In this document: piece after piece, positions 6,842-23,111 of the stretch
Layout of the letters: each line of letters begins with the position of its first letter
Numbering within the stretch: position 1 is the stretch's first letter
DNA from: a virus
Virus record (IMG/VR): IMGVR_UViG_3300030410_000067
Coordinates: 1 to 23,620 of that record
Strand: one strand, 5' to 3'
DNA: 23,620 bases
The notes under the pieces: generated by a model
Seen by the model: only the letters and a program-made list of their open reading frames with translations
Databases searched by the model: none
Told to the model about the DNA's origin: nothing
Translations under genes and position numbers: made by a program

Positions 6842-7341
6842 GCGTTCCTCATTCCTCTCTTGGCTACATCTTCGATTTCGCTGATTTGATCTTTGAGAGC
6901 GTCTATTATCTTAAACCCGCTCTCCCCATCGTAGGCTTTTTCCAATGCAGTTGAACACGAGTAAATCAGCTTTCTCAGCAAACTTTTTGCCTTTACGATT
7001 TTAACGTAATCGCGGATAAATGGACGGCTCGGCAAGCCCTCGGTGAGTCCAGCCAGATACGCAACCCCGCCGATTCTTTCTACCTCCTTGTAGCGGCCCA
7101 ACTCGTTTGCTAGTGTTACTATGTCAACTTGGCTCCCCGCGTCAATTAGTTCCCCCATGCGCAGGAAGATGCGGCGATGCGATTCGAGACAAAAATCATC
7201 TGGTTCTAGTATTTTAGCTATTTCCCATTGCTTAATCCATTCTGGCTTATCTGCGCAGGAGCACTCTAGGAGGATGGCCCCCAATATGGTAGTCTCGGCA
7301 TGGATGCTAGTAGGTGGCTGTTTAGCAACGCGACTCTTCAC
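6838..7341 (-). CDS. Stand-alone DnaB N-terminal-domain protein
   Basis: I place the start at GTG 7341, overlapping the helicase stop (GTGA) with AAAGGAGG just upstream; a TTG at 7386 would add 15 residues. The roughly 167-residue protein follows the N-terminal domain of replicative DnaB helicase: A-E-x-x-I-L-G-A-I-L, then L-x-P-D-D-F-x-x-E-S-H-R-R-I-F, V-D-I-V-T-L, I-G-G-V-A-Y-L and a Y-V-K-I-V-K-A-K-S linker helix. In DnaB this domain forms trimers of dimers and contacts primase and loader. The ATPase half is absent and the gene ends cleanly. It follows the SF2 helicase directly and may act as its partner or as a modulator of host DnaB. Confidence 0.85.
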   Translation of the reverse strand: MKSRVAKQPPTSIHAETTILGAILLECSCADKPEWIKQWEIAKILEPDDFCLESHRRIFLRMGELIDAGSQVDIVTLANELGRYKEVERIGGVAYLAGLTEGLPSRPFIRDYVKIVKAKSLLRKLIYSCSTALEKAYDGESGFKIIDALKDQISEIEDVAKRGMRNA

Positions 7342-8882
7342 TTGACCTCCTTTGACTTCATTGACTTCGCCCATTTTATCCTGCAATGTCGGTCAAACTG
7401 TTCGCACTCGAATGATGGTGGGGAGGCAACTCTTCTTAGGCATCTCGGCCATGTGCCAAACTTTTCTCGGAACCTGTGCGCCGCCATGCCTTCAGGATTA
7501 CCCCCCTCTTTGGCAATCCAGATCATCCCTGAATAAAACTCCTGCTTCTCCTGCATTGAGTATTCACGTTTGGAGCTTGGCCCTTTCTTCGGCTGGCTTC
7601 CGTAGACAGCCAGTTCCCCCTCGCGGTGCTCAATGTCGGATGTGACACGCTCCACGGTTCCACAGGCAGGACACTTTACCATCCCCTTTGGTATCAACGC
7701 GTTACACACTACGCACTTGTGCGGCTTGGATGGCCTAAGTTCTCCTTCGTAGGCTTCACCTTTCTCGTTCGGCTTCCTCATGTCCAGCGTATCGTGGTAA
7801 ATGTCGGTTACTAATCCCAACTCCAGCGCGTTACCTGCGTGGTCTAAAATCGTGCAAACTTCCTTTCCGGGTGCAGTCCTTAGTCCTCTACCGATCTTCT
7901 GAACGTGACGTATCTCGCTTTTAGTAGGAGCGGCGTCGATGATCGTGCGCACGTCTTCGTCCACTCCTGCGATCAGGCAACCAATTGAAGCAATACCGGC
8001 AATCTCTCCGTTGCGCATCTTCGCGAACTGCTTAGTTCTAACTTCTCTAGGAGTATTTGCGTCGATGTATCCAAAAGGGATACCGGAGTCGATGAACGCC
8101 CCCATCTGCTCCTTGGCGTGTGCGCGGTTCACGCAGAACATGAACGTCTTTTCCTGTGTGGATTTCTCTTTCCAGGTCTTCACAATGTCGCCCACGATAG
8201 TAGCCCCGATCATAGCAATCCCCGCACTCTTTTCCTGAAACTCGCCAGCAATCACCTTAATCTGGCTGCGGTCGAAGTCCTTGCAGGGAACATACACTTG
8301 AAACGGTGACAAGTGTTCGTCTTCGATAAGCTCCTGAATGGTAGCCGCGACGATCAGCTTACTCCATCGCAATCCAAGCCCCTTGCTCCACGGGGTTGCG
8401 CTTAGACCTATTGCTATCTTATCCCTCCATGGGCCGTCTAGCAGTTTCCCTAAACCGTCAAAGTTTAGATGAACTTCGTCAATGAATATAAGGTCCACAT
8501 CTGGCAACTCGCGACGGATGAGGGTTTGAACGCTGGCTATTTGCAACCTTGCTAGCCAGTCCGTGCGCTCATGTTGCGCCTGCATGATTCCAATATTCCT
8601 GATCCCGTCAGCCTCAAAAGACTTTAATGTTTGGTCAACAAGCGTGATAGCGGGACACGTAAATAAAACTCGATTGGATTTACTCATCGCTCCGGTTATC
8701 ATGTGAGCCGCGCACAGTGTCTTTCCCATTCCCGTTGGTGCTTGCATGATGATTCTTTTATGACCTTGTCTGACAGCTTCGCGTATCTCCAACACGGCAG
8801 CATTCTGCCTAGGACGCAGGGGTCGCAAAGATACCCTCTGCTCGTTATCAAAGAGATTTGTCACTGTATTTGCCCTCACCAC
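7338..8882 (-). CDS. SF2 DEAD/DEAH-type helicase with zinc ribbon
   Basis: The 514-residue protein has a full SF2 core. It shows R-P-R-Q (22-26), Walker A APTGMGKT (48-55), the DEVH box (135-138), SAT (161-163), a second RecA-like domain with G-C-L-I-A-G-V-D near 301-308, and motif VI QKIGRGLR (328-335). A zinc ribbon follows (Cys390, Cys393, Cys404, Cys407), then about 80 residues ending in a basic helix. Phage proteins of this type often serve as replication or recombination helicases. The start is uncertain: GTG 8882, GTG 8879 or GTG 8864, the last having GAGGG eight bases upstream. The stop overlaps the DnaB-N-like gene. Confidence 0.92.
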   Translation of the reverse strand: MVRANTVTNLFDNEQRVSLRPLRPRQNAAVLEIREAVRQGHKRIIMQAPTGMGKTLCAAHMITGAMSKSNRVLFTCPAITLVDQTLKSFEADGIRNIGIMQAQHERTDWLARLQIASVQTLIRRELPDVDLIFIDEVHLNFDGLGKLLDGPWRDKIAIGLSATPWSKGLGLRWSKLIVAATIQELIEDEHLSPFQVYVPCKDFDRSQIKVIAGEFQEKSAGIAMIGATIVGDIVKTWKEKSTQEKTFMFCVNRAHAKEQMGAFIDSGIPFGYIDANTPREVRTKQFAKMRNGEIAGIASIGCLIAGVDEDVRTIIDAAPTKSEIRHVQKIGRGLRTAPGKEVCTILDHAGNALELGLVTDIYHDTLDMRKPNEKGEAYEGELRPSKPHKCVVCNALIPKGMVKCPACGTVERVTSDIEHREGELAVYGSQPKKGPSSKREYSMQEKQEFYSGMIWIAKEGGNPEGMAAHRFREKFGTWPRCLRRVASPPSFECEQFDRHCRIKWAKSMKSKEVK

Positions 8883-8921
8883 TGCTCTGACATTGCATTT
8901 GCTTCCTTTCCTTACGGTTGA

Positions 8922-9311
8922 TTAACGGATAATTCTTGCACCTTTTTTCGCCTTGATTACTTTGAGGGCCGCGCACCCATAGGCGTAGATGGTCTGCGCT
9001 TCTGGGGCATTGATGCTGATGAGGGACGTGCAACCACTGGCGTCGATATAGGCGGCCTTTGGCGCGTCGATGCTGGTGATCGACTTGCACCCGTGGGCGT
9101 CGATGCTGGTGATCGACTTGCACCCGTGGGCGTCGATATGGGTAGCCTTTGGCGCGTCGATGCTAGTGAGGGACTTGCAGTAACTGGCGTCGATATAGGT
9201 GGCCTTTGGCGCGTCGATGCTGGTGATCGACTTGCAACCACTGGCATAGATGTGGGCGGCTTCTGACTTGACGAGCCCTTCAAATTTAATGTCGATCTTG
9301 AGAGTTTTCAT
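8922..9311 (-). CDS. 19-residue-repeat beta-solenoid protein, copy A
   Basis: A 129-residue protein starting MKTLKID with AAGGAAAGGAAG before the ATG. After a short N-cap (K-F-E-G-x-x-x-S-E-A) it consists of about five coils of a 19-residue unit of the form S-I-D-A-P-K-A-T-x-I-D-A-x-x-C-x-S-L-T. It ends in the cap I-K-A-K-K-G-A-R-I-I-R. Two I-x-A strands per unit suggest a beta-solenoid. The spacing recalls BspA-type leucine-rich or pentapeptide repeats, but I cannot assign it to either. No signal peptide is present, so it is probably cytoplasmic. It lies between the second family member and the helicase in the early operon. Function unknown. Confidence 0.8.
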   Translation of the reverse strand: MKTLKIDIKFEGLVKSEAAHIYASGCKSITSIDAPKATYIDASYCKSLTSIDAPKATHIDAHGCKSITSIDAHGCKSITSIDAPKAAYIDASGCTSLISINAPEAQTIYAYGCAALKVIKAKKGARIIR

Positions 9312-9338
9312 TTGCTTCCTTTCCTTTTCGGTTGATTG

Positions 9339-9923
9339 TTAACGGATGACTATTGCGCCTTTTTTGGCCTTGATGCTGGTAAGAGCCGTGCAACCACCGG
9401 CGTCGATGGTCTGCGCTTCGGGGGCGTCGATGCTGGTAAGGGCCGTGCAACCATCGGCGAAGATTTCGGTAGCTTTTGACGCGTCGATGCTGATAAGGGC
9501 CGTGCAACCATCGGCGTCGATATAGGTGGCTTCTGGGGCGTCGATGCTGGTAAGGGACGTGCAACCATTGGCGTCGATGGAGGTGGCTTCTGACGCGTCG
9601 ATGCTGATAAGGGCCGTGCAACCATCGGCGTCGATATAGGTGGCTTCTGGGGCGTCGATGCTGGTAAGGGACGTGCAACCATTGGCGAAGATGCTCTGCG
9701 CTTTTGACGCGTCGATGCTGACAAGGGACGTGCAACCATCGGCGTCGATATAGGTGGCTTCTGGGGCGTCGATGCTGGTAAGGGACGTGCAACCATTGGC
9801 GTCGATGGAGGTGGCTTCTGACGCGTCGATGCTGATAAGGGCCGTGCAACCATTGGCGTCGATGGAGGTGGCTTCTGATGTGAAGTGTCCCTCAAATTCA
9901 ATGTCGATCTTGGGAGTCTTCAT
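9339..9923 (-). CDS. 19-residue-repeat beta-solenoid protein, copy B
   Basis: The longest family member, 194 residues, starting at an ATGA overlap with the upstream gene. It has the same N-cap (I-E-F-E-G-H-F-T-S-E-A) and C-cap (I-K-A-K-K-G-A) as its paralogues, around about eight or nine 19-residue coils with Asp or Glu in nearly every coil and few Lys or Arg, so the solenoid is visibly acidic. Adjacent coils alternate between two types, giving a 38-residue (114-base) higher-order repeat. Acidic solenoids can mimic DNA in some pentapeptide families; that is only an analogy here. Three minus-strand frames are open through the repeats because the unit is a multiple of three; the capped frame is the real one. 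Confidence 0.82.
   Translation of the reverse strand: MKTPKIDIEFEGHFTSEATSIDANGCTALISIDASEATSIDANGCTSLTSIDAPEATYIDADGCTSLVSIDASKAQSIFANGCTSLTSIDAPEATYIDADGCTALISIDASEATSIDANGCTSLTSIDAPEATYIDADGCTALISIDASKATEIFADGCTALTSIDAPEAQTIDAGGCTALTSIKAKKGAIVIR
9477..9850 (-). repeat. 57-base tandem repeats with a 114-base higher-order period
   Basis: The coding repeats of copy B are near-identical at the DNA level. Blocks starting near 9477, 9590 and 9704 share long identical stretches, each spanning two 57-base units. This indicates recent expansion by unequal recombination or slippage. Confidence 0.75.
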
Positions 9924-10234
9924 TTGCGTCCCTCCGCGTGTGCGTCAATGAGAAGCTGGAAGCTGTCCCAGTTGACACAGGTTTTGCCACGCCATCGTGT
10001 TACCGTGTTTAGTGCCAGAGTCAAGAGTCCCTTCCTGTATCGTTGCCTTTTTTCGATGTACCGCAATAAACACAGCGTGGCCGTTTCAAAACCCGCCGCA
10101 CGGTGGGCGGCTTCGTCTGCTCGGCTCTCCAGTCCCACCTGAGATGCACAAACCACTCGGACGAACATCTCGGGGTCCTCCTTGACAACGCGAACAACCA
10201 ACTCAATCATCGCTTGCTTGTCAGCCTCGGTCAT
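9920..10234 (-). CDS. Hypothetical early-operon protein
   Basis: A 104-residue protein with AAAGGAAAA before its ATG and a stop overlapping the start of solenoid copy B. It is helical and charged, with no cysteine cluster of zinc type and no membrane segment. Residues about 1-30 form an amphipathic helix and the C-terminal third contains W-R-G-K and W-D-S-F. No family is recognised. Tight coupling to copy B means the two are made together. Confidence 0.7.
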   Translation of the reverse strand: MTEADKQAMIELVVRVVKEDPEMFVRVVCASQVGLESRADEAAHRAAGFETATLCLLRYIEKRQRYRKGLLTLALNTVTRWRGKTCVNWDSFQLLIDAHAEGRK

Positions 10235-10265
10235 TGTTTTTTCCTTTCGGTTAAGCGGGTTGTGG

Positions 10266-10502
10266 CTAAGCCATTGCGCATGACTCGCATATATCCAACT
10301 CTTCTAGCACTGGATTGTCTCCGCATTCTATGCAGTAGTGTCGGCAATCCAGACATCTAACCTGACCCTCCCATAGGTCATTGTCTTCGTGTACCATCTC
10401 CCCACAAGACTCACACTCGGTATAGGAATCGTCCGATTCTTCTTCGGGTGGGTTTAAACGCTGCTTCTCCATTAGTCGTATGGCTTCAGATTCATTCTGC
10501 AT
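10266..10502 (-). CDS. Small multi-CxxC zinc protein
   Basis: A 78-residue acidic protein with four C-x2-C pairs (Cys30/33, Cys50/53, Cys57/60, Cys72/75), enough for two zinc sites in a treble-clef or double zinc-ribbon arrangement. GAGGGATAG precedes the ATG. The first 25 residues are a charged helix. It lies between the exonuclease and an unknown gene. Such proteins in phages often bind nucleic acids or modify host polymerase, but nothing here fixes the function. Confidence 0.78.
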   Translation of the reverse strand: MQNESEAIRLMEKQRLNPPEEESDDSYTECESCGEMVHEDNDLWEGQVRCLDCRHYCIECGDNPVLEELDICESCAMA

Positions 10503-10541
10503 AGCTATCCCTCATGGTGGTGGATTGTATTGGTAAAACAG

Positions 10542-10661
10542 TTACTTTTCAGTAAATGCATTGCATTCGCCGTGAGTGCAGGGCTTCCTTATGGTGATGA
10601 TGGTTGGATCAGGGTCTATCTGCTCGATGGCGTACACAGTTTGCGCGGCGGCTCTAGGCAT
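10542..10661 (-). CDS. Possible 39-residue small protein
   Basis: An ATG at 10661 opens a 39-codon frame that fills most of the gap between the exonuclease stop (10699) and the CxxC gene. The ribosome-binding site is weak (CAGGA about 11 bases upstream). The C-terminus has a C-T-H-G-E-C segment. The longer frame upstream is a shadow of the exonuclease. It may be non-coding. Confidence 0.3.
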   Translation of the reverse strand: MPRAAAQTVYAIEQIDPDPTIITIRKPCTHGECNAFTEK

Positions 10662-10698
10662 CTGGTTAGTGAGTCCTGACAGGTAGCGGTCGGACTCT

Positions 10699-11331
10699 CT
10701 AAAGAATAGCCTCGCCCACGTCTGCGCGGCTGCGATTCTGGCGTCCCGTCCATCCGATTTGAGCGGCAAAATTTGCGAAGTCTCTAACGAGTTGGGCACA
10801 ATCTTCCTCCATTTCAGGGTAGCGGTAGGTGGTGAGTTTATGGAAAGCGTACACTTCCCAAGCAATGCCTGGTCCGTCGCTTTTGATCTCGCGACACTCC
10901 CAAACGTGGTGCTGGAAAACGTCTGCGTCGAACATGGACATGTAGAATCGTGGTTGGTACTTGTCCATGTAAGACTCGGCGTCGAACTGCGAAGTTGTTT
11001 TATCATCGGCCACGGTGCGCCCCATGATGCGGTCACACCGGGCCGAAACTATAACCCCTCCGTAGTCCTTCTCTCGCTTCTCTTCCCTGCGCGGCCAAGA
11101 TTCAATTTCGGCATCACAGGTAAAGGCGAACGTATGGCCCTCTGCGCTGATAGTGGAAGTCTCCCCAAGGCTGGCGTGTTCCATCGCGACGGCGAACGCC
11201 CTCCCCCGCATCATGGCTGGGGTAGCTACATTTTCTCCGCGAAGGTCGGCAAGGAACACACCCAACGGGTATTCATCGTCCGAAATGAACTTTCGGTAAA
11301 GGTCAAGAGAACTCACGGAAACCCTAATCAC
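10699..11331 (-). CDS. Phage PD-(D/E)XK exonuclease (RecB/Cas4-like)
   Basis: The start is GTG 11331, overlapping the end of the Sak4-like gene and preceded by CGGAGG at ideal spacing. The 210-residue protein has the RecB-type order: a G-x5-A-M-E-H motif with His52, a motif-II Asp100 (A-R-C-D-R-I), the catalytic D-D-K (Asp109/110, Lys111) and a downstream Q-P-R-F-Y helix (Gln126). These residues bind metal and cut DNA. Phage nucleases of this kind resect double-stranded ends to produce single strands for an annealing protein. The gene just upstream is the Sak4-like ATPase, so the two form a likely recombination pair. Confidence 0.85.
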   Translation of the reverse strand: MIRVSVSSLDLYRKFISDDEYPLGVFLADLRGENVATPAMMRGRAFAVAMEHASLGETSTISAEGHTFAFTCDAEIESWPRREEKREKDYGGVIVSARCDRIMGRTVADDKTTSQFDAESYMDKYQPRFYMSMFDADVFQHHVWECREIKSDGPGIAWEVYAFHKLTTYRYPEMEEDCAQLVRDFANFAAQIGWTGRQNRSRADVGEAIL

Positions 11332-12265
11332 TATGATCCTCCGTTTTCTCAGCCTGAACTCCGTTGGCGGTGGGCAGAACATAAAAACCGGCAGTCTTAT
11401 CAAACTCAAACCCAAGCCCATTGGCCCTGGTGACTAGCAGAGCTTTTTGCCCCTTGCTGAGCTTTCGTTCCTTGGACAGACCGACGAGAAGGTTGATGGC
11501 GGGAAGGTCTTGGGCTTCCTCAACGGCCTCGGCCCATTGGTCCTGCTGTTTCACGGCTTCAGCCTGGCCCTTGGTCTGGTTGTTGAGAGCGGTCTTGATC
11601 TGCGCGATCACACCAGCCAGAAACGCGGGGGAGTTGCGCAGGTCGGGAACGGGGATTTTAGGAAGCTGCGCTGGATTCTTTCCGTAACCGCCCTGCCGAG
11701 GGTCAAAGTCGAGGTAACGCTGGTCGCGGTTGTCTAGCCGTATGCGGCACATAGCATCGCTGGATTTATAGATTTCGTTTCGGCTTGACCCTTGCGCGTC
11801 AATGCGTTCCTGGGTGTCGTCGCCGTTCTTCTGCTCATCGAGATGACAAATGAGGATTATGTCTTTTTTCTGCGCTCTCAAAAATGAGAGCCACTGAGCA
11901 AACCTTCCCTTCAAAGCGCCGAAGCCCTGCAATGAAAGGCTACCGTCTCCCCGACCCATCTTGGGACTCGACTGAATGATTTCCTGCGAGAGAACGTCAA
12001 GCGCCCTTCCTGCGGTGTCCACTACGATTGTCTTGTAGGGGGATAAGTCCTCCGTTGTCATACATGATACATCGGACCAGTTGCGAATGGTTACTGAGGC
12101 CTGGCGGTTGAACGCCCGATAGATTCCGTTGTCGGTGTCCAGCGTAAAAGTGTCCTCCGCTGTTTGGGCGATAGAGGTCTTCCATAATCCTGGCTGGCTA
12201 TAAATTGTTAGGATGATGGACTCGATGTGCATTGGCTCGGTTGCTTTGATGATTTTCAGGGCCAC
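11324..12265 (-). CDS. Sak4-like phage ATPase / single-strand annealing protein
   Basis: A 313-residue RecA-fold ATPase of the phage AAA_24/Sak4-like type, starting at GTG 12265 with AGAGGT upstream and overlapping the previous stop. The P-loop region S-Q-P-G-L-W-K-T-S (23-31) keeps Lys29 and Thr30 but lacks both invariant Gly. Walker B is K-T-I-V-V-D (Asp83). A later strand I-I-L-I-C-H-L-D and an A-Q-G-S segment match the family's sensor and lid regions. The C-terminal 100 residues are helical and charged. Sak4 proteins anneal single strands with the phage SSB; an exonuclease gene follows directly and an SSB is encoded at 16763. Reduced nucleotide binding is possible. Confidence 0.8.
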   Translation of the reverse strand: MALKIIKATEPMHIESIILTIYSQPGLWKTSIAQTAEDTFTLDTDNGIYRAFNRQASVTIRNWSDVSCMTTEDLSPYKTIVVDTAGRALDVLSQEIIQSSPKMGRGDGSLSLQGFGALKGRFAQWLSFLRAQKKDIILICHLDEQKNGDDTQERIDAQGSSRNEIYKSSDAMCRIRLDNRDQRYLDFDPRQGGYGKNPAQLPKIPVPDLRNSPAFLAGVIAQIKTALNNQTKGQAEAVKQQDQWAEAVEEAQDLPAINLLVGLSKERKLSKGQKALLVTRANGLGFEFDKTAGFYVLPTANGVQAEKTEDHSD

Positions 12266-12708
12266 TAGACTACCTCTTTCTGTTTTCTCGGATTTTTTGT
12301 TTTAGGTTGCAGTGTCTCGGCGTACTCAGCGATGTACGCGATGTGCTTTCCGTACTCTGCGATCTGTGACGGCGTGTAACCCTCAACGCGCCCAATAGCC
12401 TTATATCGCTTGAGCCAGTAGCTAATTTTTCGGACGTGGCACCCGATGGCTATTTGCGTTAATGAGCACAGTGTCAGAGGGTGTCGGGAACCTTGCAGGT
12501 AGATCGGTGAAAATTCCCACGCATCGCCGTATACCCGCGCATTGCCGGACACCCGCGCATTGCCGTATACAATTGCCGTGAGGTGTAAATAAGCGGTTGC
12601 GTCAACGTGAGAGGTTTTATATACCCACCCACCGCCGTTTTTGTGAGCGTGCCAGTCTACCGGATTTGAGCCGTAGACCAGTACGTTTTGTGGGACTTTT
12701 TCATTCAT
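12265..12708 (-). CDS. Phage hexapeptide-repeat (left-handed beta-helix) protein
   Basis: I start at ATG 12708, which overlaps the upstream stop. The 147-residue protein has an N-terminal segment with imperfect hexapeptide repeats (Y-G-N-A-R-V-S-G-N-A-R-V-Y-G-D-A), the signature of short left-handed beta-helices. A conserved tail follows (S-P-I-Y-L-Q-G-S-R-H, then I-G-C-H, then W-L-K-R-Y and Y-T-P-S-Q-I-A-E-Y) that I recognise from a widespread family of uncharacterised phage early proteins. There is no evidence for transferase activity. It is the second gene of the early operon. Confidence 0.8.
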   Translation of the reverse strand: MNEKVPQNVLVYGSNPVDWHAHKNGGGWVYKTSHVDATAYLHLTAIVYGNARVSGNARVYGDAWEFSPIYLQGSRHPLTLCSLTQIAIGCHVRKISYWLKRYKAIGRVEGYTPSQIAEYGKHIAYIAEYAETLQPKTKNPRKQKEVV

Positions 12709-13061
12709 CACAGCGCCTCTTTCGCGATGATAGACTCTTCTTCGCTGGAGAGCAGCGGTTCGCAGCGGTAGACTGCTGGTCGAGCGGGTTCGATGAGGGT
12801 GCAAACCTTGTTGCGATCAATGGTTGCAAAAACTTCTAGCGCATCGCTTTTATGCGTAAGAGTGAGCTGATCGTGCGACCATCCATCCCCCTTGTCGTAT
12901 GGTCGCGGGAAGATGCGCGCCAATGCGAGAAACTCCTCTTTGGAGCCATACGAACCGTGATAAAAACTCAAGGTGGGTTGGGCAATTTCTACGTCGGGAG
13001 ACTTGTCTAGGTGGGATGCAAACGCGCGAAGCGCGTTGGCTATGGCTGATGTGGTAGGCAT
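12708..13061 (-). CDS. First gene of leftward early operon, unknown function
   Basis: A 117-residue soluble protein with an almost perfect ribosome-binding site (TTAGGAGGTG) eight bases before its ATG and a promoter about 30 bases further upstream. The N-terminal 25 residues are helical and the rest mixes strands and loops with aromatic residues. No family is recognised. Its leading position and strong translation signal suggest high early expression. Confidence 0.75.
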   Translation of the reverse strand: MPTTSAIANALRAFASHLDKSPDVEIAQPTLSFYHGSYGSKEEFLALARIFPRPYDKGDGWSHDQLTLTHKSDALEVFATIDRNKVCTLIEPARPAVYRCEPLLSSEEESIIAKEAL

Positions 13062-13090
13062 TTCTGAGCACCTCCTAAGTGCTAGATCAA

Positions 13091-13119
13091 TTCGTACTCT
13101 CGCTGCATTCTGTTGTCAA
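13091..13119 (-). promoter_or_regulatory. Leftward early promoter
   Basis: On the minus strand TTGACA (13119-13114) is followed 17 bases later by TACGAA (13096-13091). The -35 is perfect and the -10 weak, which suggests dependence on an activator or modest basal strength. It lies upstream of the early operon, back to back with the rightward promoter. Confidence 0.55.
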
Positions 13120-13148
13120 TGAAAATCCGCATGATTGCCAATAATAAA

Positions 13149-13177
13149 TTGACTTTGCGGAAGAAGGAACATATGCT
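13149..13177 (+). promoter_or_regulatory. Rightward promoter placing transcription start on an ATG
   Basis: TTGACT (13149-13154), a 17-base spacer and TATGCT (13172-13177). Standard spacing puts the first transcribed base at about 13184, the A of the HTH gene's ATG, so the mRNA would be leaderless. Confidence 0.65.
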
Positions 13178-13183
13178 TACTGC

Positions 13184-13357
13184 ATGAAACTATCAACTTT
13201 GTTGTACGATTGGCGGACGATGGAAAGAATGACGATAGCAGAGGCAGCTAAATCGCTGTCTCTTGATGCGGACACTTACCGTAGGATAGAGCGGGGTGAC
13301 TCGATGCACTCGAACACGCTTCGCTCTATCCTGCTCTGGATGATGTCAGAAGAATAA
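13184..13357 (+). CDS. Small Cro/XRE-type HTH regulator
   Basis: A 57-residue protein. Residues about 16-50 read as a compact XRE/Cro helix-turn-helix: M-T-I-A-E-A-A-K-S-L, a turn, then D-A-D-T-Y-R-R-I-E-R-G as recognition helix, followed by a short helix. It is the only rightward gene between two leftward operons and its promoter is back to back with the early leftward promoter, the arrangement of a phage switch. No Shine-Dalgarno lies at usable distance (AGAAGGAA is about 15 bases away), consistent with a leaderless transcript. Its stop overlaps the end of the convergent membrane-protein gene. Whether it represses the early operon is inference. Confidence 0.7.
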   Translation: MKLSTLLYDWRTMERMTIAEAAKSLSLDADTYRRIERGDSMHSNTLRSILLWMMSEE

Positions 13358-13576
13358 AAAATCATAGCTAAAAGCCATAAAAACAGCTAAAAGCCATAAA
13401 ATCAGTGTCACAACGCAAAAAACAGCGGTGTAATTCAGACGCATGGGGGGGGGGAGTGGTTGCAGACTAGCCCCCCAATATTCTTTATATTTTCCCGTGC
13501 TGATGGTTTCCCAGTTCGGCTCTTCCATTTCTTCAATGATTCTGCGAGCGATCACTCTGTTAATGGATTCTGTCAT
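13346..13576 (-). CDS. Small single-span membrane protein
   Basis: The start ATG 13576 overlaps the upstream stop (ATGA), with AAAGGGG before it. The 76-residue protein has a charged cytoplasmic-type N-terminal half (E-E-M-E-E-P-N-W) and one strong C-terminal membrane span (about residues 48-72). A run of ten G on the plus strand (C on the coding strand) encodes the Pro-rich turn before the span. No family is recognised. It could be a holin-like, superinfection-exclusion or envelope-modifying protein. Confidence 0.7.
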   Translation of the reverse strand: MTESINRVIARRIIEEMEEPNWETISTGKYKEYWGASLQPLPPPMRLNYTAVFCVVTLILWLLAVFMAFSYDFLFF

Positions 13577-13710
13577 TTTGATCCCCTTTCGTGGTGCGAA
13601 CGTACCGCAGAAAACAGAGAGTTGACGATGACAACGGCTAGCAGCGAAGCGGAGGCTGCTACCCATATGAGAAAAAGTGCGGATGCGATGGTTATGGCTA
13701 GATGAATCAT
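13573..13710 (-). CDS. 45-residue membrane protein
   Basis: A short gene linked by ATGA overlaps to the genes on both sides, with AAAGGGAAAA before the ATG. It encodes 45 residues: a hydrophobic stretch over residues 3-36, enough for one span or a tight hairpin, and a basic tail (R-S-H-H-E-R-G-S-K). Together with the next gene it gives a pair of coupled tiny membrane proteins. Function unknown. Confidence 0.65.
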   Translation of the reverse strand: MIHLAITIASALFLIWVAASASLLAVVIVNSLFSAVRSHHERGSK

Positions 13711-13949
13711 TTTTCCCTTTCTTGAGTCGGTTTAATTTGCCGACCCTGCTGCATACACTCGTCTAAATCGGATACAGCTAGTCTGTACGACTTCCCAATT
13801 TTCGATGCGGGGAGTCGCCCGGATTTTATCCACCGCAATATTGTTATATTGCATACCTGAAAATATTTCGCGGCTTGGTCAACGGTGGCCCACGTTTCGC
13901 GGGGAGTAGAGAAATTTTGCTCCCCGATCCAACTGTTAGTATTTTTCAT
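13707..13949 (-). CDS. Excisionase-family (HTH_17/MerR-like) DNA-binding protein
   Basis: An 80-residue protein with the winged-helix pattern of excisionase-type HTH_17 domains: T-V-D-Q-A-A-K-Y-F (about 22-30), then I-T-I-L-R-W-I-K-S-G-R-L-P-A (35-48) and K-S-Y-R-L-A-V-S-D-L-D (53-63). These bind DNA as excisionases or as transcription regulators. No integrase or attachment site is visible in the window, so a regulatory role is as likely as excision. The gene shares its leader with the solenoid genes and follows solenoid copy C. Its stop overlaps the 45-residue membrane protein. Confidence 0.85.
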   Translation of the reverse strand: MKNTNSWIGEQNFSTPRETWATVDQAAKYFQVCNITILRWIKSGRLPASKIGKSYRLAVSDLDECMQQGRQIKPTQEREK

Positions 13950-13976
13950 TTGTTCCTTTCCTGTTCGGTTGATTTC

Positions 13977-14390
13977 TTAACGGATAATTCTTGCACCTTT
14001 TTTCGCCTTGATTACTTCGAGGGCTGTGCAACCATAGGCGTAGATGGTCTGCGCTTCGGGCGCGTAAATGCTAGTGATAGCCGAGCAATCACTGGCGTAA
14101 ATGTAGGTTGCTTCTGGGGCGTCGATGCTAGTGATAGCCGTGCAACCACCGGCGTAAATGTGGGTAGCTTCTGGGGCGTCGATGCTATTGAGGGACTTGC
14201 AACCACTGGCGTCGATGTAGGTAGCCTTTAGGGCGTCGATACTGGTAAGAGCTGTGCAGTAACGGGCGTCGATGTGGGTAGCCTTTGGCGCGTCGATGCT
14301 GACAAGGGACGTGCAACCATCGGCGAAGATGGAGGTGGCTTCTGATGTGAAGTGTCCCTCAAATTCAATGTCAATCCTGAGAGTTTTCAT
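13977..14390 (-). CDS. 19-residue-repeat beta-solenoid protein, copy C
   Basis: A 137-residue intact family member. The N-cap (M-K-T-L-R-I-D-I-E-F-E-G-H-F-T-S-E-A) is almost identical to copy B, and the C-cap (Y-G-C-T-A-L-E-V-I-K-A-K-K-G-A-R-I-I-R) almost identical to copy A. It is therefore a mosaic of the first pair, with about five coils between the caps. Some coils have I-Y-A or I-F-A instead of I-D-A. The leader AACCGTAAGGAAAGGAAC precedes the ATG. It is separated by 22 bases from the frameshifted copy D upstream and is followed by the excisionase-type gene. Confidence 0.8.
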   Translation of the reverse strand: MKTLRIDIEFEGHFTSEATSIFADGCTSLVSIDAPKATHIDARYCTALTSIDALKATYIDASGCKSLNSIDAPEATHIYAGGCTAITSIDAPEATYIYASDCSAITSIYAPEAQTIYAYGCTALEVIKAKKGARIIR

Positions 14391-14412
14391 TTGTTCCTTT
14401 CCTTACGGTTGA

Positions 14413-14939
14413 TTAACGGATAATTCTTGCACCTTTTTTCGCCTTTATGCTAGCGAGGGCCGTGCAACCACTGGCGTTAATGGCCTGCGCTTCTGGGGCT
14501 TCGATACAGTAAGGGCCGCGCACTTATAGGCGTAGATGGTCTGCGCTTCTGGGGCATTGATGCTGATGAGGGACGAGCAGTAACTGGCGAAGATGTGGGT
14601 AGCCTTTGGCGCATTGATGCTGGTGAGGGCTGTGCAACCATTGGCATAAATGTGGGTGGCCTTTGGCGCTTCGATGCTGATGAGGGACGTGCAATCACGG
14701 GCGTAGATGCCGGTAGCTTCTGGCGCTTCGATGCTGGTGAGGGACGTGCAATCACGGGCGTCGATATAGGTGGCCTTTGGCGAGTCGATGCTGATGAGGG
14801 ACGTGCAGTAACGGGCGTAGATTTCGGTAGCTTCTGGCGATTCGATGCTGGTGAGGGCCGCGCAGTAATCGGCGTAGATTTCGGTAGCTTCTAATTTGAG
14901 GTGGCCTTCAAAGTTATTGTCAATCCTGAGAGTTTTCAT
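14413..14939 (-). pseudogene. Solenoid copy D, frameshifted near its 3' end
   Basis: The gene starts at ATG 14939 (MKTLRID, leader AACCGCAAGGAAAGGAAG). It reads the family repeat in frame to about base 14507, then leaves frame and ends at TAA 14445-14447 with an unrelated basic tail. Restoring one missing base near 14505-14510 recovers a further coil and the family C-cap I-K-A-K-K-G-A-R-I-I-R, with a stop at 14413-14415. So the copy carries a probable one-base deletion, or the sequence has an error there. If translated as it stands, the product is about 164 residues without the C-cap. Confidence 0.75.
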
Positions 14940-15013
14940 TTGCTTCCTTTCCTTGCGGTTGATTATGCGTTTTCCGTTTTCGCGTGTGGGGGTGGACAGT
15001 AGCATAAGCAGGG

Positions 15014-20649: not shown

Positions 20650-20946
20650 ATGAACAGCGTTGACGGCTTCATCGAAAGATATGAGGCTCAGGTTAATCGT
20701 ATCAACAGAGAGTGCCATACCGTTAGTGCGGTTGCAGATCGTATCATTCCGATATTGAACGGTTTTACGAATTCTGGACTGAGAGAATTGTTTGAACAAA
20801 TTTTTCTTGATTGGATATGGGTGGAGCCGGAGAGTTTGGAAAAAAGACGCATAGATGGAGAACTTGACGTCCTAATCAAATATGTCATACCGAATCAAAT
20901 ATGTCATACCGAGGACGAGATAAGCCTATGTTTGCTCCAGAGGTAG
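20650..20946 (+). CDS. Hypothetical protein between terminase subunits
   Basis: A 98-residue helical protein starting one base after the small-terminase stop, with AGAGGG upstream. It has F-I-E-R-Y-E-A-Q-V-N-R-I-N and a hydrophobic R-E-L-F-E-Q-I-F-L-D-W-I-W stretch. A 19-base tandem duplication near its 3' end changes its last 17 residues and extends it into the large terminase. Without the duplication it would end with R-T-R four residues after the common part. No family is recognised. Confidence 0.65.
   Translation: MNSVDGFIERYEAQVNRINRECHTVSAVADRIIPILNGFTNSGLRELFEQIFLDWIWVEPESLEKRRIDGELDVLIKYVIPNQICHTEDEISLCLLQR
20874..20911 (+). repeat. 19-base tandem duplication at the large-terminase start
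   Basis: Two perfect copies, 20874-20892 and 20893-20911. Each contains the ATG-TCA-TAC-CG that opens the large terminase. 19 is not a multiple of three, so it shifts the frame of the upstream gene. Confidence 0.92.
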
Positions 20947-23111
20947 TTGAAGAAAAACTAAAACGCTTCCAAAATTCTATTGGATGGCTTCCGACACCCC
21001 ATAGTATTGAAGAAGTAGATGCGTTCAAAAAGCGCATGGAAAGCGTATTTTCCATTGAACGGAATGGGGACATTGACCAGGTTCGAGGTCTATCGAAGTC
21101 GGAAGAAAGATTTATCGCCAACGAACGGGCCATGTGCACGGCTAGTTGTCACTATTTTCTCACCCGATATTACTATATAAAGAGCAAAAACAAGATTCAC
21201 CGATTCAATTTTCGGCAAGGACAATGGATTCTCTGGCAGATGCTTTGCGAGTTGGACCGTAAGGGCGTCTCTAAGATGATTCAATGCCTAAAAGCTAGAC
21301 AGCTTGGAATCTCCACTCTTTCTGAGGGAATTGCCACTTGGGAAAGCCAGTTCATTCCCGGAGTGGCGGCTCAGATCGGCTCTGCTGACGGTCAAAAGAC
21401 TCAAATCATGCTTGGCATGATGACTATGGCGATCGACCAACTTCCCTCATGGCTTCCCCCAACTCAAACTAAAGCCAAGATGGGAGACCGAGCACTGATC
21501 GAGTTTTCTAGAATCGGCTCGCAAATCATGGTGCAATCAGGGTCTATCAGGGGAGGAATGGGGCAAGGTTCCACCCCTACGTTCGTACATCTTTCAGAGG
21601 TGAGCCAATATACCAACCCGGTTGAGCAGTTAGATGAGGGGCTATTTAAGGCACTTCATGAGGGTCCAGAGCTTGTTGTGATTTTGGAGTCAACTGGAGA
21701 TGCCTCACACCGCTCAGCATGGTGGTGGAAAGAGCAATGGATTGCCAATAGGGATGGATACTGGTCAGGACGGGCTAAGTTTCTTCCAGTATTTTTGCCG
21801 TGGCATACTACGCCGGAGCTTTACCCCGGAGATGCTTGGCTAAAAAAGTTTCCTATGCCTGGTAGTTTTATTCCAAACGAGGACACGGAGGCTCACGTTC
21901 GCCGCGCCGAGGCGTATGTGCACTCTACTCCTATGCTTTCAAAGATCATGGGAGAAGAGTGGAAAATGCCCATGAATCAAAAGTGGTATTGGGAATTTAA
22001 CCACGAGGACCACAAGAAGAGGCGGGTTGAGAAGTCATGGTTTAGGCAGATGCCGAGTGACGATTACGAGGCTCTTTTAGGGGAGAATGATAAGGTTTAC
22101 GGTCAAGAAATAATTGAGGTCGTCACTAAAACAGTTGAAAAACTAAAGAACACGTCAGTCTATGCTCTAGTTGGAGATGACATACCGAGTCATCGGGAGC
22201 CAGAAGAGGATCGTGTTTGGTATGGGGAAGATTCACCTCAAAGACTAAAAACCAATTGGATAACAAAGAAAGGTAACAAGCTTGAATGGATGTTTGTTCC
22301 GCTGCTACCAGAGTCTGAAAACAGTTTCGACCCTTTAGAGAAGTTCCTGATTTGGAAGGAAAAAGAGGATGGGTTCGACTACTCAATAGGAGCCGACACA
22401 GGTACAGGAGTAGGGGGAGATAGAACGGTTCTTAACGTGACTCGCCACGGAACTGACGCCGATCCTGACGTTCAGGTGGCCGAATTTACGTCAGACTCCA
22501 TTCCCGCATCAGAGATTTACGTATACATAGCGGCTCTCGCTTCCCTTTATGCCCCATGTGGGATTCAGCGTCCTCATCCAAAGATTTGTATTGAGATGAA
22601 GCGAAAGTTTGGTGACTTGCCATACCATCTGGCGCGTCAGATTGGGCTAAGGCGCTGGCATGAGTGGGGTCAAGGATTCGATAGAAAGAAATTTAAGCCT
22701 AACGTAGGAGAGCATGGGAGAATCGGGTGGTTTACGAATGAGTGGAGTAGACCCTTGCTTCTTTCCGCATTCCAGTACGCTCTTGAAAACGGTTGGTATA
22801 CTGTCAAGTCGAAGTGGTTATCTGAAGAGATTGCTGGATTGGAGCAAAAAACTATGTCTTCAGGTAAAACTAGAGTTGATCACGAGTCGGGACAGCATGA
22901 CGATAGAGTGTTTGCGGCAGCGATGGCTTACTGGACGATGAACCAATCTTCTGTGATGATTGAACGCGCACAGAAGCGTTACGAATCTCCAAGCGATAAT
23001 CCAATGGTCATAGATTTCGGGGCAGCGTCGAATTCCATCATAATACCAGGCTCGAAGTGGTTTGACTTAATGGAGGAAAAATCAAACAAAAAACGTGCTT
23101 TTAATAAGTAA
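20901..23111 (+). CDS. terL: Terminase large subunit
   Basis: A 736-residue packaging motor. The ATPase half has Walker A K-A-R-Q-L-G-I-S-T-L (131-140) and a Walker B-like F-V-H-L-S-E (228-233) with Ser in place of the usual Asp before the catalytic Glu, as in some terminases. The C-terminal RNase H-like nuclease starts with S-I-G-A-D-T-G (Asp about 499) and ends with H-D-D-R (666-669). Starts at 20901 (weak ribosome site, inside a duplication) and 20928 (GAGG further upstream) are both possible. It cuts concatemers and drives DNA into the prohead. The late genes should follow to the right. Confidence 0.93.
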   Translation: MSYRGRDKPMFAPEVVEEKLKRFQNSIGWLPTPHSIEEVDAFKKRMESVFSIERNGDIDQVRGLSKSEERFIANERAMCTASCHYFLTRYYYIKSKNKIHRFNFRQGQWILWQMLCELDRKGVSKMIQCLKARQLGISTLSEGIATWESQFIPGVAAQIGSADGQKTQIMLGMMTMAIDQLPSWLPPTQTKAKMGDRALIEFSRIGSQIMVQSGSIRGGMGQGSTPTFVHLSEVSQYTNPVEQLDEGLFKALHEGPELVVILESTGDASHRSAWWWKEQWIANRDGYWSGRAKFLPVFLPWHTTPELYPGDAWLKKFPMPGSFIPNEDTEAHVRRAEAYVHSTPMLSKIMGEEWKMPMNQKWYWEFNHEDHKKRRVEKSWFRQMPSDDYEALLGENDKVYGQEIIEVVTKTVEKLKNTSVYALVGDDIPSHREPEEDRVWYGEDSPQRLKTNWITKKGNKLEWMFVPLLPESENSFDPLEKFLIWKEKEDGFDYSIGADTGTGVGGDRTVLNVTRHGTDADPDVQVAEFTSDSIPASEIYVYIAALASLYAPCGIQRPHPKICIEMKRKFGDLPYHLARQIGLRRWHEWGQGFDRKKFKPNVGEHGRIGWFTNEWSRPLLLSAFQYALENGWYTVKSKWLSEEIAGLEQKTMSSGKTRVDHESGQHDDRVFAAAMAYWTMNQSSVMIERAQKRYESPSDNPMVIDFGAASNSIIIPGSKWFDLMEEKSNKKRAFNK

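What the first reader, a model, noticed from the sequence alone, without database searches (positions are those of the whole stretch)
8922..14939. Four-member family of 19-residue-repeat solenoid proteins in two tandem pairs
Genes at 8922-9311, 9339-9923, 13977-14390 and 14413-14939 share a 19-residue unit (S-I-D-A-x-x-A-T-x-I-x-A-x-x-C-x-x-L-x), near-identical N-caps (M-K-T-x-x-I-D) and C-caps (I-K-A-K-K-G-A), but differ in repeat number and exposed residues. Copy C mixes caps of copies A and B. This looks like a phage-encoded modular binding scaffold diversified by recombination, placed among replication and regulatory genes instead of tail genes. Function is unknown; decoy, host-protein binder or DNA-mimic are speculative.
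Basis: partly seen in the sequence, partly recalled or inferred. Interest (0 to 1): 0.72.

Follow-up and report, generated by a model that had tools for sequence, protein, structure and literature searches.

The report
Phage solenoid-repeat genes that recombine
A soil-type bacterial virus carries three intact genes and one frame-slipped gene for rod-shaped proteins built from a repeated 19-residue coil; relatives differ widely in coil number and in the domains attached, so these look like quickly re-cut binding rods, although nothing yet shows what they bind.

Summary
The repeat family is real. Copies A, B and C are intact genes at the stated coordinates. Copy D is not: its frame slips near 14505, so the ORF stops at 14445 and the C-cap is in another frame. 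Copy A also has an irregular 11-residue unit. Copy B is predicted with high confidence (pLDDT 93.9) as a regular two-strand-per-coil solenoid, closest to BspA-type leucine-rich repeats (LRRs). Copy C is a mosaic: a B-like start and an A-like end (Fisher p=0.0014). Relatives occur in other environmental viral contigs and one Rhodopseudomonas genome. They carry 2 to at least 14 units, and two genomes 99.94% identical outside the array differ in unit number (assembly collapse not excluded). The same coil is fused to different N- and C-terminal domains. One N-domain, absent from Pfam, PHROGs and PDB fold space, also carries quite different repeat tails. Phages sharing the window's recombination module lack this solenoid; several carry other in-frame repeat genes there. 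Best reading: an exchangeable early-region solenoid, a compact LRR variant, probably binding proteins inside the cell. Binding, targets and expression are untested. DNA mimicry is unlikely for the family, since net charge runs from +6 to -22.

The parts
8922..9311 (-). Copy A: solenoid gene, 129 aa, net charge +6; four full 19-residue units, one 11-residue partial unit, then the IKAKKGARIIR cap
   Evidence: exact 33-nt tandem repeat at 9064-9137
9339..9923 (-). Copy B: solenoid gene, 194 aa, eight full units plus cap, net charge -22; start overlaps the end of the upstream ORF by 4 nt
   Evidence: AlphaFold2 pLDDT 93.9
13977..14390 (-). Copy C: solenoid gene, 137 aa, five full units plus cap; B-like 5' end and A-like 3' end
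14445..14939 (-). Copy D as read in frame: 164 aa, six full units, then a frame slip and a stop; no C-cap in this frame
14416..14505 (-). Copy D remnant: last coil and IKAKKGARIIR cap, in a different frame from the rest of D
14940..14968 (-). Repeated gene-start leader (AATCAACCG.AAGGAAAGGAAGCAA) before D; near-copies lie before C, before A, before the HTH gene at 13949 and just after A
   Evidence: family D3, 5 copies
13707..13949 (-). Small HTH protein (HTH_17, excisionase-like), directly downstream of copy C and sharing its leader
12265..12804 (-). Another repeat-bearing gene between the two pairs: hexapeptide beta-solenoid (YdcK type, 2.4e-6, below curated cut-off)
11324..12265 (-). Sak4-like ssDNA annealing protein
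   Evidence: phrog_124, 2.3e-41
10699..11421 (-). ORF matching phrog_34697 (unknown function); exonuclease role inferred from position
   Evidence: 7.4e-13; travels with Sak4 in relatives
7338..8882 (-). DNA helicase, directly downstream of copy A
   Evidence: phrog_16, 3.4e-70

Best explanation
These are accessory early-region phage genes for small rod-like solenoids, a compact 19-residue-per-coil variant of the leucine-rich-repeat / BspA-like fold. Shown: conserved core residues, variation concentrated at strand and turn positions that the pattern suggests face outward, and mosaicism of copy C. Inferred from comparison: units and whole end-modules are gained, lost and exchanged by recombination between near-identical repeats, so length and exposed surface change quickly while the fold is kept. 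Inferred: the rods stay in the infected cell and bind proteins, of the host or of competing or defence elements, acting as inhibitors, decoys or adaptors. The two tandem pairs would give this phage several surfaces at once, with D decayed or damaged.
For: Model of copy B: pLDDT 93.9, pTM 0.86, two short strands per coil. Foldseek best PDB hits are BspA-type LRR proteins 4gt6 and 4fs7 (E 2.6e-4, 5.6e-4); top viral hits include LRR and BspA-family proteins. Hypervariable positions 14 and 18 (entropy 2.3 and 2.7 bits) with almost no synonymous change, against core positions 1, 6, 7, 12, 15, 17 with no amino-acid change. By DSSP on the model, position 14 is in strand 2. Mosaic copy C, p=0.0014. 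Unit number in relatives from 2 to at least 14; 99.94% identical genomes with 2 against at least 7 units plus cap. Same coil with three N-terminal types and at least two C-terminal types. Neighbours are helicase, Sak4 and HTH genes, not virion genes. Relatives also lie by recombinases or replication-type genes.
Against: No target, expression or phenotype was tested. D is frame-slipped and A has a broken coil, so selection on each copy may be weak. Phages sharing the core module do without the gene. The nearly identical pair with different unit number could partly reflect assembly collapse, since many relatives' contigs end inside the array. TM-scores to the two best LRR structures are low (0.44 and 0.28), so 'LRR' is a class resemblance, not an identical architecture.
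Confidence: 0.5

Rival explanations
1. Virion or surface adhesin: the solenoids decorate particles or the host surface and bind glycans or receptors, as BspA-type LRR surface proteins are thought to do.
For: Closest folds are LRR surface proteins. A weak relative in phage NatCom_3357 lies between a very large gene and the holin.
Against: No hydrophobic leader is visible at the N-terminus (sequence inspection). Genes lie in the minus-strand replication module, and relatives lie by recombinases or nuclease-type genes.
Confidence: 0.15
2. Nearly neutral repeat genes: slippage-prone tracts that persist without a selected binding function.
For: D is frame-slipped, A has an 11-residue unit, relatives lack the genes, and other phages carry quite different repeats such as (GS)n or Ala-rich tracts.
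Against: Core residues are invariant while their codons vary synonymously; caps, ribosome-binding leaders and the fold are kept; the same caps recur in unrelated contigs.
Confidence: 0.2
3. DNA mimic or topoisomerase inhibitor, analogous to pentapeptide-repeat proteins.
For: Copy B is strongly acidic (net -22, pI 4.05). A phage with a related module carries a pentapeptide-repeat protein.
Against: Copy A is basic (+6), D is -1 and the L011 relative is +1; acidity is not a family trait.
Confidence: 0.1
4. PARCEL elements (TIGR02167 / DUF285): mobile palindromic repeat-coding elements of surface proteins.
For: TIGR02167 scores above its cut-off on A, B and C; PARCELs have been reported in a Vibrio jumbo phage (PMC7765460).
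Against: The best matched stretch in each copy is only 10 residues. PARCEL units are 25 residues with coding-DNA dyad symmetry (PMC2996958); here units are 19 and no palindrome longer than 8 nt was found.
Confidence: 0.05

Closest known systems
BspA-type leucine-rich repeat proteins (solved: 4gt6, 4fs7; phage members annotated 'BspA family leucine-rich repeat surface protein')
   Same: Foldseek top class; repeated GC(T)(S)L(T)SI signature; strand-based solenoid
   Different: 19 residues per coil where BspA-type coils have about 23 (own knowledge); no secretion or anchor features seen; early phage module; no Pfam LRR model passes its cut-off
PARCEL / TIGR02167 / DUF285 repeats (PMC2996958)
   Same: Tandem amphipathic repeat; NCBIfam score above cut-off
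   Different: Unit 19, not 25; no DNA dyad symmetry; only 10-residue best matches
Prophage HyvI/HyvII (LasAI/II) of Ca. Liberibacter asiaticus (PMC3708911)
   Same: Phage-borne LRR-like genes with near-identical tandem repeats and reported repeat gains and losses
   Different: 44-residue unit; reported as autotransporters (LasAI 919 aa); no sequence comparison was made here
Phage pentapeptide-repeat + DUF5758 proteins
   Same: In-frame solenoid repeat gene in an early module sharing Sak4, exonuclease-type and helicase genes (L055)
   Different: Different repeat and different cap domain

Membership tests
Leucine-rich repeat, BspA/LRR_5 class | Regular solenoid with one strand-bearing coil per repeat | tested here: met
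   AlphaFold2 pLDDT 93.9, strands every coil
Leucine-rich repeat, BspA/LRR_5 class | Structural similarity to solved BspA-type LRRs | tested here: met
   4gt6 E 2.6e-4, 4fs7 5.6e-4, the only hits below 0.001; low TM-scores
Leucine-rich repeat, BspA/LRR_5 class | Match to a curated LRR profile above cut-off | tested here: not met
   Best is LRR_4 at E 0.1, 13.3 bits against a cut-off of 27
PARCEL / TIGR02167 | Profile score above curated cut-off | tested here: met
   38.9, 48.7 and 34.4 bits against 30 for A, B, C; D 24.2, below
PARCEL / TIGR02167 | 25-residue repeat | tested here: not met
   Spacing 19
PARCEL / TIGR02167 | Palindromic coding DNA | tested here: not met
   No stem of 7 bp or more with loop up to 20; only an 8-nt palindrome in B. 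MEME, used by the authors, was not run
DNA mimic protein | Strong net negative charge across the family | tested here: not met
   Net +6, -22, -5, -1; relative +1
DNA mimic protein | Competes with DNA for a binding protein | not testable with these tools
   Needs biochemistry
Anti-defence or defence protein | Match to a known defence-system model | tested here: not met
   No PADLOC match at 0.1; PADLOC covers defence, not counter-defence
Phage structural repeat protein | Encoded in a virion gene cluster | tested here: not met
   Neighbours are helicase, Sak4 and HTH genes

The most novel reading that the evidence does not exclude
Many uncultured phages keep a 'solenoid slot' in their early region: a small set of end domains (including an undescribed MC(K/N)FASFVLTKD domain) onto which tandem-repeat tails of unrelated kinds (19-residue LRR, other LRRs, MORN, DUF5649-like, Ala-rich) are exchanged, with repeat number retuned by recombination. 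This would be a system for making changeable intracellular binding surfaces without a dedicated mutagenesis enzyme.
Probability: 0.22. Interest if true: 0.75.

Novelty: new variant of a known kind. Interest (0 to 1): 0.5.

Why it matters
Fast-evolving phage proteins are best known on tail fibres. A family of intracellular-looking rods whose length and surface are re-cut by repeat recombination would be a natural counterpart of designed repeat-protein binders, and a lead to unknown host or defence targets. The associated N-terminal domain has no Pfam, PHROG or PDB-fold match and recurs with different repeat tails, which makes the idea testable by asking what the constant domain does.

Tried and rejected
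PARCEL membership: rejected on unit length and palindromy. DNA mimic: not a family trait. Known defence models: none. Relatives in GenBank phages: the 19-residue coil gave no match, only weak LRR-like hits at a loose cut-off; BLAST low-complexity masking may hide some. The first helicase relative, L029, lacked the solenoid. Fold search of the N-domain gave nothing. I considered that the GYVFAGVDSRGY..WRVLAGCRN cap of L013/L017/L018 might be related to the C-end of L055's hexapeptide protein or window ORF 12265-12804: not significant. Diversity-generating retroelement: no reverse transcriptase was recognised among the window ORFs scanned, but no dedicated search was run. Whether the window genome also encodes the MCKFAS domain: none in this 23.6-kb record, which may be a fragment.
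Full report
What is there. The window is a 23,620-base IMG/VR virus record classed as linear. On the minus strand, in transcription order, lie D, C, an HTH gene, several small genes, Sak4, an ORF matching phrog_34697, small genes, B, A, a helicase and a DnaB-like N-terminal protein. A, B and C are intact ORFs with Cys-to-Cys spacing of 19 residues. D is not intact: reading from ATG 14939 it meets a stop at 14445, and its last coil and C-cap (14416-14505) are in another frame. This may be a real frame slip or an assembly error. Copy A has an 11-residue unit next to an exact 33-nt tandem repeat.

More than chance. Tandem Repeats Finder gives 57-nt periodicity with scores up to 784 for the 114-nt double unit. 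A 57-nt period keeps several frames open, so ORF length is no evidence here. The annotated frame has the highest synonymous share of single-base codon differences (46%; next best 41%). Core positions A12 and I15 vary only synonymously, while positions 14 and 18 vary almost only in amino acid. Each copy except B has a near-identical leader with AAGGAAAGGA before the ATG.

Recombination. Copy C is 93% identical to B over its first 60 nt (80% to A) and 91% identical to A over its last 90 nt (79% to B). Sites where A and B differ split 12:3 towards B in the first 75 nt and 15:4 towards A in the last 90 nt, Fisher p=0.0014.

Fold. AlphaFold2 on copy B, with an alignment of ten window and locus proteins, gives pLDDT 93.9 and pTM 0.86, with two short strands in each coil, at unit positions near 4-8 and 14-16. 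Foldseek's only PDB hits below E 0.001 are two BspA-type LRR proteins. Top viral hits are mostly LRR proteins of phages and giant viruses. TM-scores are low, so I call it an LRR-class solenoid with an unusually short coil, not a standard LRR. No Pfam LRR profile passes its cut-off. The variable positions 14, 16, 18 and 19 fall on or just after strand 2; that they form one face is inference from the strand pattern.

Relatives. Profile and protein scans found relatives in IMG/VR contigs (L009-L012, L014-L022), one Rhodopseudomonas MAG (L013) and, through a shared N-domain, 22 loci. The cap IKAKKGA or variants recurs. No match was found in 50,697 GenBank phages with P0003 or with the relatives' coil consensus; weak LRR-like hits appear at a loose cut-off. 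Unit number in proteins with both ends present ranges from 2 (L012) to at least 14 (L038). L011 and L012/L016 are 99.94% identical over 10.2 kb, yet L012 has two units plus cap and L011 at least seven plus cap before its contig ends. Because many contigs stop inside the array, part of this could be assembly.

Modularity. The same coil follows three kinds of N-terminus: the window's MKT.KID..FEG, MC(K/N)FASFVLTKD (L012, L020, L031 and others), and a .DKIF..VD......FMAMDKS type (L014, L015, L019). It ends in the IKAKKGA cap or in a GYVFAGVDSRGY..WRVLAGCRN..HWGPGG domain (L013, L017, L018). The MC(K/N)FAS domain has no Pfam or PHROG match, is well predicted (pLDDT 94.3) and has no PDB fold match. 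It is also followed by quite different repeats: LRR_EndoS-like (L040), DUF5649-like (L043), Ala-rich (L046) and MORN_2 (L051).

Setting. Phages sharing the Sak4 gene and mostly also the phrog_34697-type and helicase genes (L054-L065) have no 19-residue solenoid by tblastn with masking off. Several carry other in-frame repeats: pentapeptide plus DUF5758 and a VRGNQ hexapeptide in L055, an Ala-rich protein in L056, a short-unit repeat in L054; L029 has a (GS)n ORF before its helicase. The window itself has a hexapeptide-repeat gene between the two pairs. The genes are thus accessory, in a region that often accepts repeat genes. The terminase's best GenBank relatives are Tunturiibacter phages, about 30% identical, which hints at an acidobacterial host but does not show it.

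Mechanism. Shown: repeated coil, conserved core, variable outer positions, a mosaic copy, varying unit number among relatives (with the assembly caveat), exchanged end domains, early-type neighbourhood. Inferred: recombination between near-identical units as the cause; an intracellular location; protein binding as the function. The LRR and solenoid class is used mainly for binding (own knowledge), no catalytic motif is visible, and charge differs strongly between copies, which fits different partners better than one conserved ligand. I put about 0.5 on this whole reading; the structural and evolutionary part alone is much safer, the binding role much less.

Comparison with known systems. It works like other repeat binders and resembles the prophage HyvI/II genes of Liberibacter, where repeat gains and losses were reported (PMC3708911). 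Tandem repeats as evolutionary hot spots in phages have also been discussed for crAssphage BACON domains (PMC6949934, abstract start only). It is not a PARCEL by unit length and palindromy (PMC2996958).

Verdict. The wider pattern of a constant domain with exchangeable repeat tails is the more interesting lead.

Noticed in passing
L030-L051: An undescribed ~95-residue phage domain (MC(K/N)FASFVLTKD...(I/V)DQD..P.W...EKRTR.AL) in 22 IMG/VR loci; wherever the contig runs far enough it is followed by a repeat tail, of at least five different kinds.
   Followed up: partly
L054-L065: Phages sharing the window's Sak4 module lack its solenoid; several carry other tandem-repeat genes (pentapeptide+DUF5758, VRGNQ hexapeptide, Ala-rich).
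   Followed up: partly
L010, L012, L013, L032: Solenoid genes lie next to a site-specific recombinase gene (serine type in L010; tyrosine integrase type in L012, L013, L032), judged from the sequences only.
   Followed up: no
L050:4001-4306: The MCKFAS domain is cut short and runs in frame straight into a TELKADAA coil, either a natural deletion or an assembly chimera.
   Followed up: no
window 8880-8924, 9293-9337, 13931-13975, 14371-14415, 14921-14965: A repeated ~30-nt gene-start leader (AATCAACCG.AAGGAAAGGAA.CAAATG), also before a non-repeat gene; it could serve as homology for whole-gene recombination.
   Followed up: partly
window 20901-23111: The large terminase has its best GenBank hits in Tunturiibacter (Acidobacteriota) phages at about 30% identity, suggesting a little-sampled phage lineage.
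   Followed up: no
L012:6934-7674: A second paralogue in the same phage (P0005) with strongly diverged coils, MCNFAS domain and IKAKKGA cap, showing old and young arrays side by side.
   Followed up: no
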